The notes beneath the pieces were generated by a model. That model worked only from the letters and a program-made list of their open reading frames with translations, ran no database searches and had not been told where the DNA came from. The position numbers and the translations under genes are program-made. From the NCBI RefSeq assembly GCF_009696675.1, contig NZ_VULN01000015.1, forward strand, positions 1 through 64,000: a stretch of 64,000 bases of DNA, in the 5' to 3' direction. This document shows positions 1,719-63,215 of the stretch, one piece after another. The first letter of the stretch is position 1, and every line of letters begins with the position of its first letter. The DNA is from Acidaminococcus fermentans (GTDB lineage: Bacteria; Bacillota; Negativicutes; Acidaminococcales; Acidaminococcaceae).

Positions 1719-2572
1719 AAACACTCCACGAAAAAGGGATCCACCAGCCGGGGGTCCTGGATCTGCGGCCTCTCATGGAACTGGTCCGGGTACTCCGGGA
1801 GCCGGGAGGCTGTCCCTGGGACCGGGTCCAGACCCATACTTCCATGCGCCGGGAACTGGTGGAAGAAGTCTATGAGATGCTGGAAGCCATCGACGACGGC
1901 AATGTAGCCGGCATGCGGGAAGAAATGGGGGATGTGCTCCTCCAGGTGGTGTTCCACGCCCGGCTGGCGGAAGAAGAGGGGCTCTTTGCCATGCAGGATG
2001 TAATCGATGATGTGGTGAAGAAGCTGGTCCACCGGCATCCCCATGTTTTCGGCGATACCAAGGTCACAGGGGCCGGGGAAGTGATGGCCAACTGGGAGAC
2101 CCTGAAGGCTCAGGAAAAGACTGAACGGACCCATGCCCTGGATGGCATCGCCAAGGGGCTGCCAGCCCTGATGCGGGCCTACAAACTCAGCGCCAAAGCC
2201 GCCAAAACCGGGTTTGACTGGCCCGATGCCCCGGCTGCATGGCAGAAGGTGGAAGAAGAGAAAGACGAGCTCCAGGAGGCTGCAGCGAGCCGGGACAGGG
2301 ACCGGACGGAAGAGGAACTGGGGGACCTGCTCTTTGCCCTGGCCGTCTATGCCCGGAAACTGGACCTGGAACCGGAAACCACTTTGAACCGGGCCAACAA
2401 CAAATTCCAGCGCCGTTTTGAGCAGCTGGAAGCCCAGGTGAAGCAGGAAGGAAAAGAATGGAAAGACCTGACTCTGGAAGAACTGGAACACCGGTGGCAG
2501 GAGGCAAAGAGAGCAGTAGGGGACGGTCAGCGGTCAGCTGACCAACATGGGGGCACAGGTCGCGAGTCGTGA
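1715..2572 (+). CDS. mazG: Nucleoside triphosphate pyrophosphohydrolase MazG
   Basis: This 285-residue protein hydrolyses (d)NTPs to NMP and pyrophosphate (house-cleaning). It has two MazG domains, each with the metal-binding acidic pattern: ELVEEVYEMLEAI with EEMGDVLLQVVFHA in the first, and EEEKDELQEA with EEELGDLLFALAVYAR in the second. The N-terminal LRxPGGCPWDxxQTHxS motif is also typical. ATG 1715 overlaps the flippase stop (ATGA), indicating translational coupling. The last ~17 residues (GDGQRSADQHG...) are not MazG-like. They are encoded by a copy of the intergenic TGAC repeat that runs into the 3' end. Confidence 0.92.
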   Translation: MKTLHEKGIHQPGVLDLRPLMELVRVLREPGGCPWDRVQTHTSMRRELVEEVYEMLEAIDDGNVAGMREEMGDVLLQVVFHARLAEEEGLFAMQDVIDDVVKKLVHRHPHVFGDTKVTGAGEVMANWETLKAQEKTERTHALDGIAKGLPALMRAYKLSAKAAKTGFDWPDAPAAWQKVEEEKDELQEAAASRDRDRTEEELGDLLFALAVYARKLDLEPETTLNRANNKFQRRFEQLEAQVKQEGKEWKDLTLEELEHRWQEAKRAVGDGQRSADQHGGTGRES

Positions 2573-2600
2573 CCCGCGACCGGGGCTGCGGCCCCTGCTC
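2519..2600 (-). repeat. TGAC-type dispersed repeat with GC-rich palindromes at the mazG 3' end
   Basis: The segment starts with GGTCAGCGGTCAGCTGACC, the reverse-strand form of the 7-bp TGAC-unit repeat found at about a dozen places in this window. Two GC-rich inverted repeats follow: GTCGCG...CGCGAC, and GGGGC-TGCG-GCCCC near 2582-2595, which may act as a weak terminator. The first part is translated as the mazG tail. Confidence 0.6.
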
Positions 2601-2721
2601 TGGCCCCTTGTTTTCAAGATTTTCCCAAAAAACACGTGCATTTTTCCTATGATTGTGCTAATATGACCATAGTCAGGCGCCAGCCATGCAGGCGCAATAC
2701 CTATTTAGGAGGATTTATCTC

Positions 2722-9770: not shown

Positions 9771-10839
9771 ACAGATCCGGCTGACCATTTTCGGGGAATC
9801 CCACGGACCCTCCATCGGCGTGGTGATGGACGGGCTGCCGGCCGGGATCGAACTGGATCTGGAAGCCATTGAAAAGGAAATGAAACGCCGGGCACCGGGA
9901 ACCAGCAAACTGGCCACCCCCCGGAAGGAAAGTGACAGCTTTATCATTGAAAGCGGGTTCTTCAACGGGAAGACCACCGGCATGGCCCTGTGCGCCCGGA
10001 TTCCCAACAGCAACGCCCATTCCAAAGATTACAGCAAAATGAAGGAAATCATGCGGCCGGGCCATGGGGATTATGCAGGATATGTGAAATTTCACGGTTG
10101 CAACGACTACCGGGGCGGGGGCAGCTTTTCCGGACGGCTGACGGCGCCTCTGGTGTTTGCCGGGGCAGTGGCCAAGCAGCTGCTGGCCAAAGAGGGCATG
10201 TTTATCGGGGCCCATGTGGCGTCTCTGGCCGGGATCCGGGACAGAAGGTTCAATCCTCTGGGAGAAGATCCGGAAACCTTCCGGGCCCTTTCCGGAGAGA
10301 TCCTGCCGGTGCTGGATCCGGCGGTACGGGAGCCCATGGCCGCCCAGGTCACTGCTGCCCAGAAGGACAGGGATTCCGTAGGGGGCACCATTGAATGCAT
10401 GGCAGTGGGCCTGCCTGTCGGCCTGGGAGAACCCTATTTCGATTCCGTGGAAAGCCGGCTGAGCCATGCCCTCTTTTCCGTACCGGCGGTGAAGGGCATT
10501 GCCTTTGGGGATGGATTCGCCCTGGGGACCATGCGGGGCAGTGAGGCCAATGATCCCATGGCATACCGGGACGGGAAAGTGGTGTGCACCACCAACCACA
10601 ACGGGGGAGTCACCGGAGGCATCACCAACGGCATGCCCCTTTTGTTTACGGTGGTGATCAAACCCACCCCTTCCATCGGAAAGACCCAGCATACGGTGAA
10701 TGTGGTTACCGGGGAAGACACCACCCTGGAAGTTACCGGGCGCCACGATCCCTGCATCCTGCCCCGGGCGGTGCCGGTGATCGAGGCGGTGACCGCCTGG
10801 ACCCTGCTGGATCTGCAGCTTGTGGCACAGCGGAGGTAG
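9751..10839 (+). CDS. aroC: Chorismate synthase
   Basis: This 362-residue FMN-dependent enzyme converts EPSP to chorismate. It begins MSSVMGEQIRLTIFGESHGPSIG and contains RPGHGDYAGYVKFHG, DYRGGGSFSGRLTAP and NHNGGVTGGITNGMP, all family signatures. ATG 9751 has AGGAGG at 9740-9745; the longer upstream frame is part of aroA. Confidence 0.96.
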   Translation: MSSVMGEQIRLTIFGESHGPSIGVVMDGLPAGIELDLEAIEKEMKRRAPGTSKLATPRKESDSFIIESGFFNGKTTGMALCARIPNSNAHSKDYSKMKEIMRPGHGDYAGYVKFHGCNDYRGGGSFSGRLTAPLVFAGAVAKQLLAKEGMFIGAHVASLAGIRDRRFNPLGEDPETFRALSGEILPVLDPAVREPMAAQVTAAQKDRDSVGGTIECMAVGLPVGLGEPYFDSVESRLSHALFSVPAVKGIAFGDGFALGTMRGSEANDPMAYRDGKVVCTTNHNGGVTGGITNGMPLLFTVVIKPTPSIGKTQHTVNVVTGEDTTLEVTGRHDPCILPRAVPVIEAVTAWTLLDLQLVAQRR

Positions 10840-15467: not shown

Positions 15468-15527
15468 AAAATTTGCCTGCAAATTTTATCATTCGGCCAT
15501 TGACGATTGACAATTGACCATTGACAA
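15468..15527 (+). repeat. Composite dispersed repeat: palindrome + CGGCC + four TGACNRY heptads
   Basis: A perfect palindrome AAAATTTGC-CT-GCAAATTTT (15468-15487) is followed by ATTCGGCC and four consecutive 7-bp units (TGACGAT, TGACAAT, TGACCAT, TGACAAA). The palindrome recurs once more in the opposite orientation at 34993-35012, again next to the heptads. This is the most complete plus-strand copy in the window. Confidence 0.75.
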
Positions 15528-15531
15528 AAAA

Positions 15532-15562
15532 AGAGGGTGCTGCTCTGCAGCACCCTCTCTTT
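15532..15562 (+). terminator. Terminator of the glycerate kinase gene
   Basis: The stem AGAGGGTGCTGC / GCAGCACCCTCT (12 bp, loop TCT) is followed by CTTTT. It directly follows the heptad repeat. Confidence 0.85.
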
Positions 15563-18256: not shown

Positions 18257-18447
18257 CTGGTTGTCACTGGTCTCTGGCCAATGGAAAGAATCCGTGGCTG
18301 ACGGGTTCTTTCGAATAAAAAAGACGTTGCTTTTCTTTTAATCTGTTGCTTGTTGTGAGTTCTTCTGAAGAGCAAGGACAAGCCAAAGGCGCGTCCGAGC
18401 CAGCTTCATACAATGAAAGACAGCCGCAGCCCGGCTGCCTTTCTTTA
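18257..18447. other. Intergenic segment with hairpins, no gene seen
   Basis: No credible coding frame is present. A short hairpin GAAAGAATCCGT...ACGGGTTCTTTC (18282-18313) follows the membrane gene and is followed by an A/T-rich run, a plausible terminator. A second GC hairpin CAGCCGCAGCCCGGCTG (18421-18437) is followed by CCTTTCTTT. Confidence 0.5.
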
Positions 18448-18478
18448 TCCAGTGACCAGTGACAAGAGGCCAGTGACA
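18448..18478 (+). repeat. TGAC heptad repeat
   Basis: Units TGACCAG, TGACAAG, AGGCCAG and TGACAGG follow each other. The third has lost the TGAC core. It abuts the terminator at 18479. Confidence 0.6.
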
Positions 18479-18510
18479 GGGGGGTGTGAATTTTTCACAC
18501 CCCCCTTTTT
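18479..18510 (+). terminator. Strong terminator upstream of copA
   Basis: The stem GGGGGGTGTGAA / TTCACACCCCCC (12 bp, loop TTT) plus five T insulates copA from the upstream operon. Confidence 0.88.
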
Positions 18511-21177: not shown

Positions 21178-21195
21178 CTGTTGACCATTGACAAA
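21178..21195 (+). repeat. TGAC heptad repeat (two units)
   Basis: TGTTGACCATTGACAA contains two TGAC units immediately before the copA terminator. Confidence 0.5.
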
Positions 21196-25419: not shown

Positions 25420-25482
25420 AGGCTGTTGCCTTGGTAGCAGCCTGTCAACGGCCGCTGACCGCTGACTGTTGACTGCTGACAA
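25420..25482 (+). repeat. TGAC heptad repeat downstream of ftsH
   Basis: A weak hairpin GGCTGTTGCC...GGTAGCAGCC (25423-25442) is followed by CGGCCGC and units TGACCGC, TGACTGT, TGACTGC and TGACAAG. A terminator then follows at 25487. Confidence 0.7.
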
Positions 25483-27124: not shown

Positions 27125-27154
27125 ACGGTCAATTGACCGTTGACCGCTGACAAA
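27125..27154 (+). repeat. TGAC heptad repeat downstream of bioY
   Basis: GGTCAATTGACCGTTGACC and GCTGACAAA give three successive TGAC units (TGACCGT, TGACCGC, TGACAAA) directly before the terminator. Confidence 0.65.
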
Positions 27155-28117: not shown

Positions 28118-28182
28118 CGGTCGCGGGTCGCGGTCAGCTGTCAATGGTCAATGGCCGAAGGAAGCCAACTTTCGTTGGCTTT
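28118..28182 (-). repeat. Composite repeat, minus orientation (hairpin + CGGCC + heptads)
   Basis: Read on the minus strand, the hairpin AAGCCAAC-GAAA-GTTGGCTT (28181-28162) is followed by CTTCGGCC. Units TGACCAT, TGACAGC and TGACCGC come next, then degenerating GACC units. It has the same architecture as the copies at 32515 and 52774. Confidence 0.7.
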
Positions 28183-28203
28183 GAAAAATTGAAAACGGAA
28201 TGA

Positions 28204-28324
28204 CTGTTCCTGTCTGTAAGTGGAAACTCAGTTGTTATTGAGTTTTCGCCTTGGCTTTCTTTCAGACAGTTCTTTACAAGGAACAGATTCAAAAGCAGGA
28301 AGCAGTGAATTGCTGCTTCCTGCT
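28204..28324 (+). other. Structured intergenic element ending in a terminator-like hairpin
   Basis: Nested inverted repeats: CTGTTCC (28204-28210) with GGAACAG (28280-28286), TGTCTG (28211-28216) with CAGACA (28263-28268), and AAACTCA with TGAGTTT inside. A perfect 12-bp hairpin AGCAGGAAGCAG / CTGCTTCCTGCT (28294-28324) with only a short T run follows. No coding frame is credible. It could be a small RNA, an mRNA 3' structure or a mobile-element remnant. Confidence 0.5.
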
Positions 28325-28326
28325 TT

Positions 28327-28346
28327 CATTCGGCCATTGACAATCA
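28327..28346 (+). repeat. Short TGAC repeat remnant before dusB
   Basis: CATTCGGCCATTGACAATCA preserves the TTCGGCC prefix and one or two units. It is a minimal copy of the dispersed repeat. Confidence 0.5.
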
Positions 28347-32514: not shown

Positions 32515-32568
32515 AGGCGGTCAGCTGTCAACGGTCAGCGGCCGGAGGAAGCCAGTCTCGCTGGCTTT
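32515..32568 (-). repeat. Composite TGAC repeat, minus orientation
   Basis: On the minus strand the hairpin AAAGCCAG-CGAGA-CTGGCTT (32568-32549) precedes CTCCGGCC, then GCTGACCGTTGACAGCTGACC. It separates pepV from the epimerase gene. Confidence 0.7.
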
Positions 32569-34968: not shown

Positions 34969-35012
34969 GTCAGCGGTCAGCGGCCGGATGTAAAAATTTG
35001 CAGGCAAATTTT
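34969..35012 (-). repeat. Composite TGAC repeat with the AAAATTTGC palindrome, minus orientation
   Basis: The palindrome AAAATTTGC-AG-GCAAATTTT (34993-35012) is the exact reverse complement of the one at 15468. Read on the minus strand it is followed by CATCCGGCC and two TGAC units. The remaining bases to 35130 hold GC-rich short hairpins (for example CCGCCC-TTGAAAA-GGGCGG) but no gene. Confidence 0.65.
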
Positions 35013-35156
35013 TCGAATGGAAACGCAGCCAGCGGCTGCTAACCCACCACCATTGCGCAAGCGCAACGGTTCCCCGCCCTTGAAAAGGGCGGATATCTGC
35101 CGGGGCTGACGCCTGCTGCCTTTACAGTACCAGTGCAACCAAAGGAGCACAGTCAC

Positions 35157-40172: not shown

Positions 40173-41732
40173 ATGATCAGTGCCGGATTGTTAGCGGAAG
40201 CGAAAGAAACTGTAAGAGATTTGAGCGTTCGTGAATTGATTGAAGAAGCCATCCGTAACGGAGAAGGGACCTTTTCCGACCGGGGTGCGCTGCGGGTAAC
40301 CACCGGGACCCATACGGGCCGTTCTCCCAAGGACAAATTCATTGTGGACACCCCTCTGACCCATGATGTGGTGAACTGGAACAACAACCAGCCCTGCAGC
40401 CAGGAAACTTTCGACCGGCTCTATGCCAAATGCGAAGAATTCATCAAGACCCACAAGGTCTATGTGAAGAACGTGAAGGCGGGGGCAGACCCCAAATACC
40501 AGATCCGGGTGAAATTCATCAACGAAATGGCCTGGCAGACCGTTTTCGTCAGCCAGCTGTTCATCAAGACCGATGAACCCAGCACCGTCCAGGAAGATTT
40601 CACGGTAATCTCCCTGCCCAGCGTGGAAGCGGATCCGGCCACGGACCATACCCATTCTGAAACCTTCATCATCCTGAACTTCGACAAGAAAGTGGTCCTG
40701 ATCGGCGGTGGCATGTACGCCGGGGAACTGAAGAAATCCATTTTCTCCGTGATGAACTACCTGCTGCCCCGTCAGGGCATCCTGACCATGCACTGTTCCT
40801 GCAACGAAGGGAACAAAGGAGATGTGGCCCTGTTCTTCGGCCTGTCCGGTACCGGCAAGACCACCCTGTCCGCCGATCCTCAGCGTTCCCTGATCGGGGA
40901 TGACGAACACGGCTGGGGAGACAACGGGGTGTTCAATATCGAAGGGGGCTGCTATGCCAAGTGCATCGACCTGACGGAAGACAGCCAGCCGGAAATTTAC
41001 CGGGCTGTCCGGTTCGGTGCGGTAATGGAAAACGTGGTGGTGGATCCCAAGAACGGGGTGCCGGATTTCTCCGACAACAGCATTACGGAAAACACCCGGG
41101 TGGCTTATCCCCTGAACTACATCCCCAACGCCAAGCTGCCCAGCATGGCCGGCCATCCCAAGAACATCATCTTCCTGACCGCCGATGCTTTCGGGGTGCT
41201 GCCTCCCATCTCCAAACTCACCAAAGAACAGGCCATGTACCATTATCTTACCGGCTACACCAGCAAGGTGGCCGGTACGGAACGGGGAATCACGGAACCC
41301 CAGGCCACCTTCTCTACGGCCTTCGGGGCGCCTTTCCTGCCGCTGCCTCCCCTGACCTATGCCAAGCTGCTGGGAGAACGGATCGCCAAGCATGAAACCA
41401 ACGTGTACCTGGTGAACACCGGCTGGAGCGGCGGCCCCTACGGGGTTGGCAAACGGATGAAGCTGGCCTACACCCGGGCCATGATCCACGCGGCTCTGGA
41501 CGGGGAACTGGGCAAGGAAGGCTGGACCACCATGCCCATGTTCGGGGTCTCCATCCCCAAATCCTGCCCCAATGTGCCCAGCAACGTGCTGAATCCCCGG
41601 AGCACATGGGAAGACAAGGGAGCTTACGACGAAACCGCCCGGAAACTGGCCCGTCTCTTCCAGGAAAACTTCAAGAAATTCCAGGGAGAAGTAACCGAAG
41701 ACATCGCCTCCGCCGGACCGGTGGTGAAATAA
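40173..41732 (+). CDS. pckA: Phosphoenolpyruvate carboxykinase (ATP)
   Basis: This 519-residue enzyme interconverts oxaloacetate + ATP and PEP + CO2 + ADP. Motifs: [12 protein letters not shown] (substrate), [13 protein letters not shown] (kinase P-loop), [26 protein letters not shown] (metal/adenine) and [15 protein letters not shown]. In amino acid-fermenting anaerobes it can run in either the gluconeogenic or the ATP-forming direction. It has its own promoter and terminator. Confidence 0.97.
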
Positions 41733-41754
41733 GCGGGAAGGGGGAGCTTTCCCC

Positions 41755-41770
41755 TATTGACCATTGACAA
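41755..41770 (+). repeat. TGAC heptad repeat (two units)
   Basis: CTATTGACCATTGACAAA, directly before the pckA terminator. Confidence 0.5.
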
Positions 41771-41772
41771 AA

Positions 41773-41805
41773 AAAGAGGGACGCAGGTGCGTCCCTCTTT
41801 TTTTT
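41773..41805 (+). terminator. pckA terminator
   Basis: AAAGAGGGACGCA-GG-TGCGTCCCTCTTT followed by more T. Confidence 0.9.
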
Positions 41806-52773: not shown

Positions 52774-52834
52774 GGCAGACGCTTTGCATCTGCCTTCCTT
52801 CGGTCGCTGACCGTTGACAGCTGACTGTTGACAA
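52774..52834 (+). repeat. Composite TGAC repeat (hairpin + TTCGGTC + four heptads)
   Basis: The hairpin GGCAGA-CGCTTTGCA-TCTGCC (52774-52794) is followed by TTCCTTCGGTCGC and units TGACCGT, TGACAGC, TGACTGT and TGACAAA. A terminator follows at 52838. Confidence 0.7.
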
Positions 52835-61796: not shown

Positions 61797-63193
61797 TGAA
61801 AAAAGTCGATGTAGCAATTATTGGCGGGGGGCCTGCCTCCATTTACGCCGCTTATGAATTTGTCCTGAAATACCCCAAGGCCCAGGTGCTGATCCTGGAA
61901 GAAGGCCATGCCATTGATTTCCGCAGCTGTCCCATTATCGCCGGGAAAGTGGAAAAATGCGTCCGCTGCACCCCCTGCAGCATTATGCGGGGATTCGGGG
62001 GCGCCGGGGCTTTTTCCGACGGCAAGTACAATTTCACCACTGAATTCGGAGGCTGGCTCAGTGATTACATCCCCAAAAAGACCGTGATGGATCTCATCGA
62101 CTACGTGGATGAAATCAACCTGAAGCACGGGGCGCCCGGAGAAGTGTATTCCACCAAGAACTGCAAAATCGGACGGCTGGCCCTGGGCCATGACCTGCAC
62201 CTGCTGAACGCCAAAGTGCGGCACCTGGGTACTGACAACAACCGGAAACTGATGGCCAGCATCTACCGGTTCCTGCTGGATCACGGAATCCAGATCCAGT
62301 GCGACACCCAGGTGGATACCTTCCATCCCTGTGAAGAGGGCTATGAGGTGGTGCTCAAGGACAGCCCGGACACCATCCGGTGCACCTATCTCATCGGGGC
62401 TCCCGGCCGGGCCGGGGCGGAATGGTTCTCCGGCCAGTGCGAAAAGCTGGGGTTGGAACTGACCAACAACCAGGTGGACGTGGGGGTCCGGGTGGAAGTA
62501 CCGGCCGCCGTGTTCCAACACATTACCGACGAAGTGTACGAAGCCAAGCTGGTGTACCGGACCAAAGGGTACGGGGATCGGGTACGGACCTTCTGCATGA
62601 ACCCCAACGGCTATGTGGTGGCAGAAAACACCGACGGCATCGTCACCGTTAACGGCCACAGCTTCAGCGACCCCAAAAAGAACAGCGGCAACACCAACTT
62701 TGCCCTCCTGGTGAGCAACCGGTTCACGGAACCTTTCAAGGAACCCCACCGGTATGGCAAACACATCGCTTCCCTGTCCAACATGCTGGGAGGCGGTGTG
62801 CTGGTCCAGCGGTTCGGGGACCTGATCAAAGGCCGGCGGACCAACGCCCACCGGCTGAGCCAGAGCTTCCTCCGGCCCACCCTCAATGCGGTGCCCGGGG
62901 ATCTGAGCCTGGTGCTGCCCAAACGCCATCTGGACAACATCATCGAAATGATTTACGCCCTGGACAAAGTGGCGCCGGGTACCGCCAACGACGACACCCT
63001 GCTCTACGGGGTGGAAGTGAAGTTCTACAGCGCCCGGCTGGAACTGGATGACCAGCTGGAAACCAAACTGCCCAACTTCTTCGCCATCGGGGACGGGGCC
63101 GGCATCACCCGGGGCCTGAGCCAGGCCAGCGCCAGCGGCGTCTACGTGGCCCGGATCATCGGGGAGAGAATGAAGGGTTCATCAGGCCATTGA
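61793..63193 (+). CDS. FAD-dependent dehydrogenase of the COG2509 type
   Basis: This 466-residue flavoprotein has the FAD-binding motif VAIIGGGPASIYAAYEF. The family Cys motif FRSCPIIAGKVEKCVRCTPC is followed by GFGGAGAFSDGKYNF, and the end FFAIGDGAGITRGLSQASASGVYVARII is typical. The function of this family is not established; the Cys cluster could bind Fe-S or zinc. ATG 61793 overlaps the previous stop codon. It is the last gene of the trio. Confidence 0.87.
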   Translation: MMKKVDVAIIGGGPASIYAAYEFVLKYPKAQVLILEEGHAIDFRSCPIIAGKVEKCVRCTPCSIMRGFGGAGAFSDGKYNFTTEFGGWLSDYIPKKTVMDLIDYVDEINLKHGAPGEVYSTKNCKIGRLALGHDLHLLNAKVRHLGTDNNRKLMASIYRFLLDHGIQIQCDTQVDTFHPCEEGYEVVLKDSPDTIRCTYLIGAPGRAGAEWFSGQCEKLGLELTNNQVDVGVRVEVPAAVFQHITDEVYEAKLVYRTKGYGDRVRTFCMNPNGYVVAENTDGIVTVNGHSFSDPKKNSGNTNFALLVSNRFTEPFKEPHRYGKHIASLSNMLGGGVLVQRFGDLIKGRRTNAHRLSQSFLRPTLNAVPGDLSLVLPKRHLDNIIEMIYALDKVAPGTANDDTLLYGVEVKFYSARLELDDQLETKLPNFFAIGDGAGITRGLSQASASGVYVARIIGERMKGSSGH

Positions 63194-63215
63194 CAATTGA
63201 CTATTGACCATTGAC
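63186..63215 (+). repeat. TGAC heptad repeat (four units)
   Basis: AGGCCAT precedes units TGACAAT, TGACTAT, TGACCAT and TGACGGG; the last runs into the terminator stem. Confidence 0.7.

What the first reader, a model, noticed from the sequence alone, without database searches (positions are those of the whole stretch)
15468..15527. Dispersed composite repeat built from 7-bp TGACNRY units
Seen at about 13 intergenic places (2519, 15468, 18448, 21178, 25441, 27125, 28118, 28327, 32515, 34969, 41755, 52774, 63186). Two to four consecutive heptads (TGAC + NRY or NNT) follow CGGCC(A/G)(C/T). In several copies a small hairpin of differing sequence precedes this (AAGCCAAC/GTTGGCTT, AAGCCAG/CTGGCTT, GGCAGA/TCTGCC, or the palindrome AAAATTTGC-CT-GCAAATTTT). 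Copies occur in both orientations. Inference: a non-autonomous mobile or slippage-driven repeat akin to REP/BIME elements; every unit also contains a TTGAC-like -35 core.
Basis: seen in the sequence. Interest (0 to 1): 0.65.

Follow-up and report, generated by a model that had tools for sequence, protein, structure and literature searches.

The report
Hairpin-built mobile repeat with 7-bp ends
The 7-letter repeats mark the outer ends of a family of short, non-coding, hairpin-rich DNA elements that has spread through the genomes of a few species of the gut bacterium Acidaminococcus, and they expose unusually fast swapping of the DNA hairpins that normally end genes.

Summary
(TGACNNN)3 occurs 11 times in the window (0 expected) and 108 times in the 2.35-Mb Acidaminococcus genome (0 for the reversed pattern). 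The heptads are the outer ends of a larger non-coding element: (GTCARYN)n-RYGGCCGAAGG-hairpin-TTGAA-interior-TTCAA-hairpin-CCTTCGGCCRY-(NRYTGAC)n, usually beside a terminator. Solitary, collapsed and truncated copies are common. A. fermentans carries at least 30 dispersed copies of one 220-bp member, the best 95-97% identical. Arrays are dense in 4 of 9 Acidaminococcus genomes, and orthologous sites can be filled, empty or occupied by another heptad family: dispersal, not simple inheritance. RAYT/Y1 transposases and group II intron reverse transcriptases do not track the arrays; no target-site duplication was detected. Neighbouring heptads are not more alike than chance, against fresh slippage. 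Hairpins inside and beside the elements appear exchanged wholesale: 54% of strong intergenic terminators are non-homologous between two species at 89% flanking identity, against 8% of intragenic hairpins. Best reading: a new MITE/BIME-like family spread by hairpin-associated copying through an unknown mechanism. Heptamer over-representation and paired inverted heptamers were already known in other bacteria.

The parts
15468..15487 (+). inner hairpin AAAATTTGC-CT-GCAAATTTT of a right-end module
15494..15525 (+). CGGCCAT + heptad array (TGACGAT TGACAAT TGACCAT TGAC)
15533..15557 (+). outer terminator hairpin GAGGGTGCTGC..GCAGCACCCTC next to the array
18263..18463 (.). degenerate paired element (left GTCACTGGTCTCTGGCC, hairpin 18421-18437, right CCAGTGACCAGTGAC); A. 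fermentans has a different standard element at this site
18478..18506 (+). outer terminator hairpin
21182..21192 (+). two-unit array (TGACCATTGAC) before a terminator
25420..25443 (+). terminator-like hairpin directly abutting the collapsed element
25444..25480 (+). collapsed element GTCAACGGCCGC(TGACNRY)n; another heptad family sits at this site in A. fermentans and A. massiliensis
27127..27151 (+). collapsed element GTCAATTGACCGTTGACCGCTGAC; absent at the A. fermentans site
28133..28341 (.). complete element between coaX and dusB: left array, hairpin 28162-28181, interior, hairpin 28295-28323, right CGGCCATTGAC; simple terminator at this site in G005 and A. provencensis
32520..32567 (-). array + CGGCC + hairpin (single end); decayed copies in A. 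fermentans and A. massiliensis, empty in G005
34969..35013 (-). array + CGGCC + hairpin (one end); interior of the GGTTAGCAGCC type continues to about 35113
41758..41768 (+). two-unit array between two terminator hairpins; the four species have unrelated hairpins here
52774..52832 (+). hairpin GGCAGACGC..GCATCTGCC + CGGTCGC + four-TGAC array
63184..63215 (+). AGGCCAT + four-TGAC array, abutting a terminator hairpin
2526..2536 (-). two-unit array next to GTCGCGAGTCGTGACCCGCGACC (second heptad type)

Best explanation
The heptads are the outermost part of the ends of a non-autonomous, non-coding, hairpin-built dispersed element (MITE/BIME-like) confined to one group of Acidaminococcus species. 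A complete copy is a set of nested inverted repeats: outward-facing arrays of TGAC heptads, a short GGCCGAAGG/CCTTCGGCC stem, one hairpin at each end and a variable interior. Shown: dispersal, gain and loss between species, mosaic structure, variable heptad number, position beside terminator-type hairpins, and whole hairpins that differ while the sequence on both sides stays. Inferred: copies spread and hairpins are exchanged by DNA copying between hairpins (microhomology-guided template switching at stalled forks, or a single-strand hairpin-recognising enzyme not yet identified) rather than by a RAYT or by a classical transposase that duplicates its target. The TGAC cores are probably kept because some protein or the copying process uses them; this last step is a guess.
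For: Dispersal: at least 30 copies of one 220-bp element in A. fermentans, the best 95-97% identical full length, with unrelated flanks; 220 and 112 dispersed matches of 70 bp or more around arrays in samples of the two genomes. Gain and loss: empty, filled or differently filled orthologous sites. Architecture: paired outward arrays; hairpins before 85 of 157 arrays and within about 10 nt after 95 of 157, against 6.5% at random positions; folding z-scores -7.6 and -8.7. Hairpin exchange: conserved GCTGCGTTTCCNTTCA and CCTTCGGCC flank several unrelated stems; a 122-bp terminator-bounded cassette sits at 6-8 places, and in one copy replaces hairpin 1 of the 220-bp element; 54% of 35 strong intergenic terminators lack homology to the orthologous spot, against 8% of 201 intragenic hairpins, at 89% flanking identity.
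Against: No enzyme was found. No target-site duplication: mean 0.72 against 0.94 in shuffles. All dating is between species, so no event has been seen within a strain series. Fast point mutation with compensatory change could mimic some hairpin replacement. Left and right arrays of one element are not complementary beyond chance, so they are not simply one long stem.
Confidence: 0.6

Rival explanations
1. Ordinary MITE family: a DDE transposase, present or recently lost, recognises the TGAC heptads as multiple binding sites in the terminal inverted repeats and moves the elements by cut and paste.
For: Terminal inverted symmetry, TGAC core kept at fixed 7-bp spacing while N and R/Y drift, near-identical dispersed copies with unrelated flanks.
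Against: No target-site duplication signal; heptad number differs between near-identical copies; terminators travel with some copies; no autonomous copy recognised in the sample, though that search was too loose to be decisive.
Confidence: 0.2
2. REP/BIME elements proper, mobilised by a RAYT (Y1 tyrosine transposase).
For: Hairpin with conserved flanking letters, single or paired inverted modules with mosaic interiors.
Against: No Y1_Tnp match in the genome with 108 matches; six copies in a congener with none. The hairpin is tagged by TTCA/CCTT rather than GTAG or CGTC.
Confidence: 0.05
3. Replication slippage creates and lengthens heptads in place; dispersal is incidental.
For: Period 7 is the commonest short period in unselected Bacillota loci, heptamers are over-represented in bacteria and slippage has been proposed (PMC4692102, PMC4679880); heptad number varies.
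Against: Adjacent heptads are not more alike than chance: 7 against 9.0 expected in G000, 4 against 12.4 in A. fermentans. Arrays come with a conserved module and a dispersed 220-bp element.
Confidence: 0.1
4. Functional sites: binding sites of a regulator, nucleoid protein or RNA-binding protein, or parts of 3' UTRs.
For: TGAC kept with constrained R-Y positions (about 98-100% purine at position 6 and 90-92% pyrimidine at position 7, against 33% NRY in all TGACNNN); position close to gene ends and terminators.
Against: No preference for 3' over 5' gene ends and a mix of tandem, convergent and divergent gaps; sites not conserved between species.
Confidence: 0.05

Closest known systems
Xanthomonas GGGAATC heptameric repeats (PMC4692102)
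   Same: Heptamer arrays, intergenic, near gene ends, 70-75 inverted pairs per genome, extensive length and sequence variation between close species.
   Different: Different heptad (G-quadruplex former); no hairpin module, terminator-bounded cassette or dispersed 220-bp element described in the passages read; sites there mostly conserved between the two species.
TAACTGA heptamer repeats of Beggiatoaceae, cyanobacteria and Bacteroidetes (PMC4679880); cyanobacterial STRRs (own knowledge)
   Same: Short arrays of a 7-mer, intergenic, patchy phylogenetic distribution, no known mechanism.
   Different: One fixed heptad, mostly upstream of start codons, essentially not paired or inverted.
REP/BIME and REPIN elements with RAYT (PMC3116915, PMC3733652, PMC2817692)
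   Same: Palindromic modules, single or in inverted pairs, mosaic interiors, high copy, intergenic.
   Different: No RAYT in this genome, no GTAG/CGTC tag, stem sequence is not family-specific, ends carry TGAC heptads.
MITEs
   Same: Small non-coding terminal-inverted-repeat elements with recent near-identical copies.
   Different: No target-site duplication detected, no parent insertion sequence identified, ends of variable heptad number.

Membership tests
REP/BIME (RAYT-associated) | Y1 tyrosine transposase (RAYT) in the genome | tested here: not met
   PF01797: no match in G000; presence does not track arrays
REP/BIME (RAYT-associated) | GTAG or CGTC (or similar) tag beside the hairpin | tested here: not met
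   the hairpin is flanked by TTCA and CCTT/CCAT
REP/BIME (RAYT-associated) | palindromic modules in single and inverted-pair arrangement with mosaic interiors | tested here: met
MITE | short non-coding element with terminal inverted repeats, dispersed copies with unrelated flanks | tested here: met
MITE | target-site duplication | tested here: not met
   flank direct repeats not above shuffles, 25 elements
MITE | parent autonomous insertion sequence with the same ends | tested here: inconclusive
   too loose; transposase families other than Y1 not surveyed
bacterial heptameric tandem repeats | three or more in-register 7-nt units, mostly intergenic, beyond chance | tested here: met
bacterial heptameric tandem repeats | neighbouring units alike, as expected from slippage (proposed mechanism, not a strict definition) | tested here: not met
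terminator-targeting group IIC introns | group II reverse transcriptase present where elements are | tested here: not met
   no TIGR04416 match in A. fermentans or A. massiliensis

The most novel reading that the evidence does not exclude
Intrinsic terminators and other short hairpins in Acidaminococcus behave as exchangeable cassettes: a process copies a whole stem-loop, or a stretch bounded by two stem-loops and carrying heptads, from one genomic site into another between conserved flanking letters, without a dedicated transposase and without target duplication.
Probability: 0.3. Interest if true: 0.8.

Novelty: new variant of a known kind. Interest (0 to 1): 0.5.

Why it matters
Heptamer arrays are among the commonest unexplained repeats of bacteria. 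Here they are tied to the ends of a recently dispersed element, with complete, collapsed and empty sites in close relatives, so the process that makes and moves them can be tested. The rapid exchange of terminator hairpins would show how transcription ends can be rewired, and would warn against treating terminators as slowly evolving.

Tried and rejected
RAYT/Y1 transposase as mover. Group II intron reverse transcriptase as mover. Left and right heptads as one covarying stem: identical triplets 0.14-0.17, shuffled 0.15. Target-site duplication: CCC/CCCC flanks looked suggestive in a few copies but the systematic test was negative. Autonomous parent element between arrays 0.45-3.5 kb apart: criteria too loose, 94 intervals, no parent recognised. 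Rfam: no family at gathering threshold in the window. Plasmid collection: no match to the 220-bp element. Promoter role of TTGAC: no support. TGAC as a universal core: in other Bacillota the reversed control pattern is as frequent, so TGAC is specific only within Acidaminococcus.

Full report
Identity. The window lies in an Acidaminococcus genome (2.35 Mb, 34 contigs). Named relatives of its coaX gene are A. massiliensis (97% protein identity), A. provencensis and A. intestini. Matching coordinates identify handle G003 as A. massiliensis, G008 as A. provencensis and G004 as A. intestini. G007 is a single 2,329,769-bp contig that I take, from memory of the genome size, to be A. fermentans.

Observation. 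Perfect runs of three TGAC heptads are far above chance in the window (11 against 0) and genome (108 against 0 for the reversed pattern). By genome the counts are G000 108, A. fermentans 164, A. massiliensis 66, G005 45; the other five Acidaminococcus genomes have 0-3, and the rest of the family and class almost none. The unit is TGAC-N-R-Y: in two genome samples position 6 is a purine in about 98-100% of units and position 7 a pyrimidine in about 90-92%, whereas only 33% of all TGACNNN are NRY. The preferred triplets differ by species: mainly CAT, CGT, AAT, CGC, AGC here and AGC, CGT, CGC in A. fermentans.

Anatomy. Arrays are ends of a larger element. Reading outward, an end is TTCA, a hairpin of 8-12 bp, CCTTC, GGCC, RY, then TGAC heptads. 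Of 157 arrays with at least two TGAC in two genomes, 85 have a strong hairpin directly upstream, with the stem ending 4 or 6 nt before the array motif in most, and 95 have one within about 10 nt downstream; random positions give 6.5%. In 27 candidate pairs, most of them clear elements, a left and a right end face outward around an interior of about 60-330 bp. Window 28133-28341 is a complete example between coaX and dusB; as RNA it folds to -97 kcal/mol, z -7.6, with the two ends forming the closing stem. A 291-nt stretch with the A. fermentans element gives z -8.7 as DNA. Collapsed forms such as GTCAACGGCCGC-TGAC (25444) lack the inner hairpins and abut terminator stems. The heptads of the left and right arrays of one element are not complementary beyond chance, so the arrays are not one long conserved stem.

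Dispersal. A 220-bp element of A. fermentans has at least 30 copies there, several 95-97% identical over full length, with unrelated flanks; G000 has 48 and A. massiliensis 14 matches, mostly partial, and A. provencensis, A. intestini, G001 and G002 have none. Near-identical copies differ in heptad number at both ends. In G000, 220 dispersed matches of 70 bp or more surround arrays. Orthologous sites show gain and loss: 27134 has only a terminator in A. fermentans; 32520 is empty in G005 and decayed in A. fermentans and A. massiliensis; at 28133 G005 and A. provencensis have a simple terminator, while A. massiliensis has the same layout with another heptad (TGACGTA) at both ends; at 15495 and 25444 A. 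fermentans has an element of a second heptad family (CTCGCGACC type) between the two hairpins.

Hairpin exchange. Three results suggest that whole hairpins are replaced. First, among copies sharing GCTGCGTTTCCNTTCA upstream and CCTTCGGCC downstream, several unrelated stems occupy the same place. Second, a 122-bp cassette bounded by two terminator stems and containing an array occurs at 6-8 unrelated places in A. fermentans, and in one copy has replaced hairpin 1 of the 220-bp element between GGAA and TTTGAA. Third, at orthologous positions of G000 and A. fermentans with about 89% identical downstream DNA, 54% of 35 strong intergenic terminators have no homologous hairpin in the other species, against 8% of 201 intragenic hairpins; in most of these cases another hairpin stands there. 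Terminator stems fall into a few recurrent types (CTGTTGC, GGTGCTG, GTGTGAA). The sample is small and some cases are insertions rather than swaps.

Mechanism. RAYT-type Y1 transposases are absent from this genome and do not track the arrays; nor do group II intron reverse transcriptases. No target-site duplication emerges from 25 elements. Neighbouring heptads are not more alike than chance: 7 observed against 9.0 in G000 and 4 against 12.4 in A. fermentans, P = 0.0025 for depletion, so fresh slippage is not the main source of the units. I therefore favour copying between hairpins, for example template switching at stalled forks guided by short shared letters, or an unidentified single-strand enzyme. 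This step is inference.

Known context. Heptamers were reported to be over-represented in bacteria in 2007, with polymerase slippage proposed (cited in PMC4692102 and PMC4679880). Xanthomonas GGGAATC heptamers form 70-75 inverted pairs per genome (PMC4692102), and TAACTGA heptamers occur in Beggiatoaceae, cyanobacteria and Bacteroidetes (PMC4679880). In my unselected sample of other Bacillota, period 7 was the commonest short period, with varied cores. Across 398 phylum genomes, runs of four TGAC heptads occur in 33, in unrelated families and each with its own triplets; some there also form outward-facing inverted pairs. The reversed control was as common outside Acidaminococcus, so TGAC is not universal. 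The Acidaminococcus element is thus a new variant: heptamer arrays as ends of a hairpin-built dispersed element.

Limits. Statistics rest on about 454 kb of this genome and 400-460 kb of A. fermentans chosen partly for arrays. Gene calls are simple longest-ORF calls. All comparisons are between species.

Noticed in passing
L104 10135-10465, L128 and L111 orthologues of window 15495 and 25444; window 2526-2610: Second heptad family (GGTCGCGGG / CTCGCGACC, core GAC) at the ends of another element type, often at the same intergenic sites as TGACNRY elements in a sister species.
   Followed up: partly
window 41732-41800, 44498, 27155 and orthologues: Intergenic terminator hairpins replaced by unrelated hairpins between species while the promoter just downstream is conserved.
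   Followed up: partly
L144, L147, L148, L149 (unrelated Bacillota): Outward-facing inverted pairs of TGAC heptad arrays (TGACTCC/TTC, TGACGAC/AGC) also occur in distant Bacillota families.
   Followed up: partly
L203 (IMGVR_UViG_3300026549_002542): A viral contig carries an Acidaminococcus-type end module (hairpin + GGCCGC + four TGAC heptads), possibly a prophage of this genus.
   Followed up: no
L111 near 10507-10569, orthologue of window 27134: A. fermentans has three tandem copies of TTTTCCTTGACAACTCCCCC, i.e. of a promoter -35 region upstream of coaX.
   Followed up: no
L083 7605-7745: Tandem copies of an ATATCCGCCCTTTTCAAGGGCGG...ACCAGCCG segment, the interior of one element type, in G000 but single in the A. 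fermentans orthologue.
   Followed up: no
G000:C34:46501-47391 (L211): A reverse-transcriptase-like ORF (387 aa, weak group II match); not shown to relate to the repeats.
   Followed up: no
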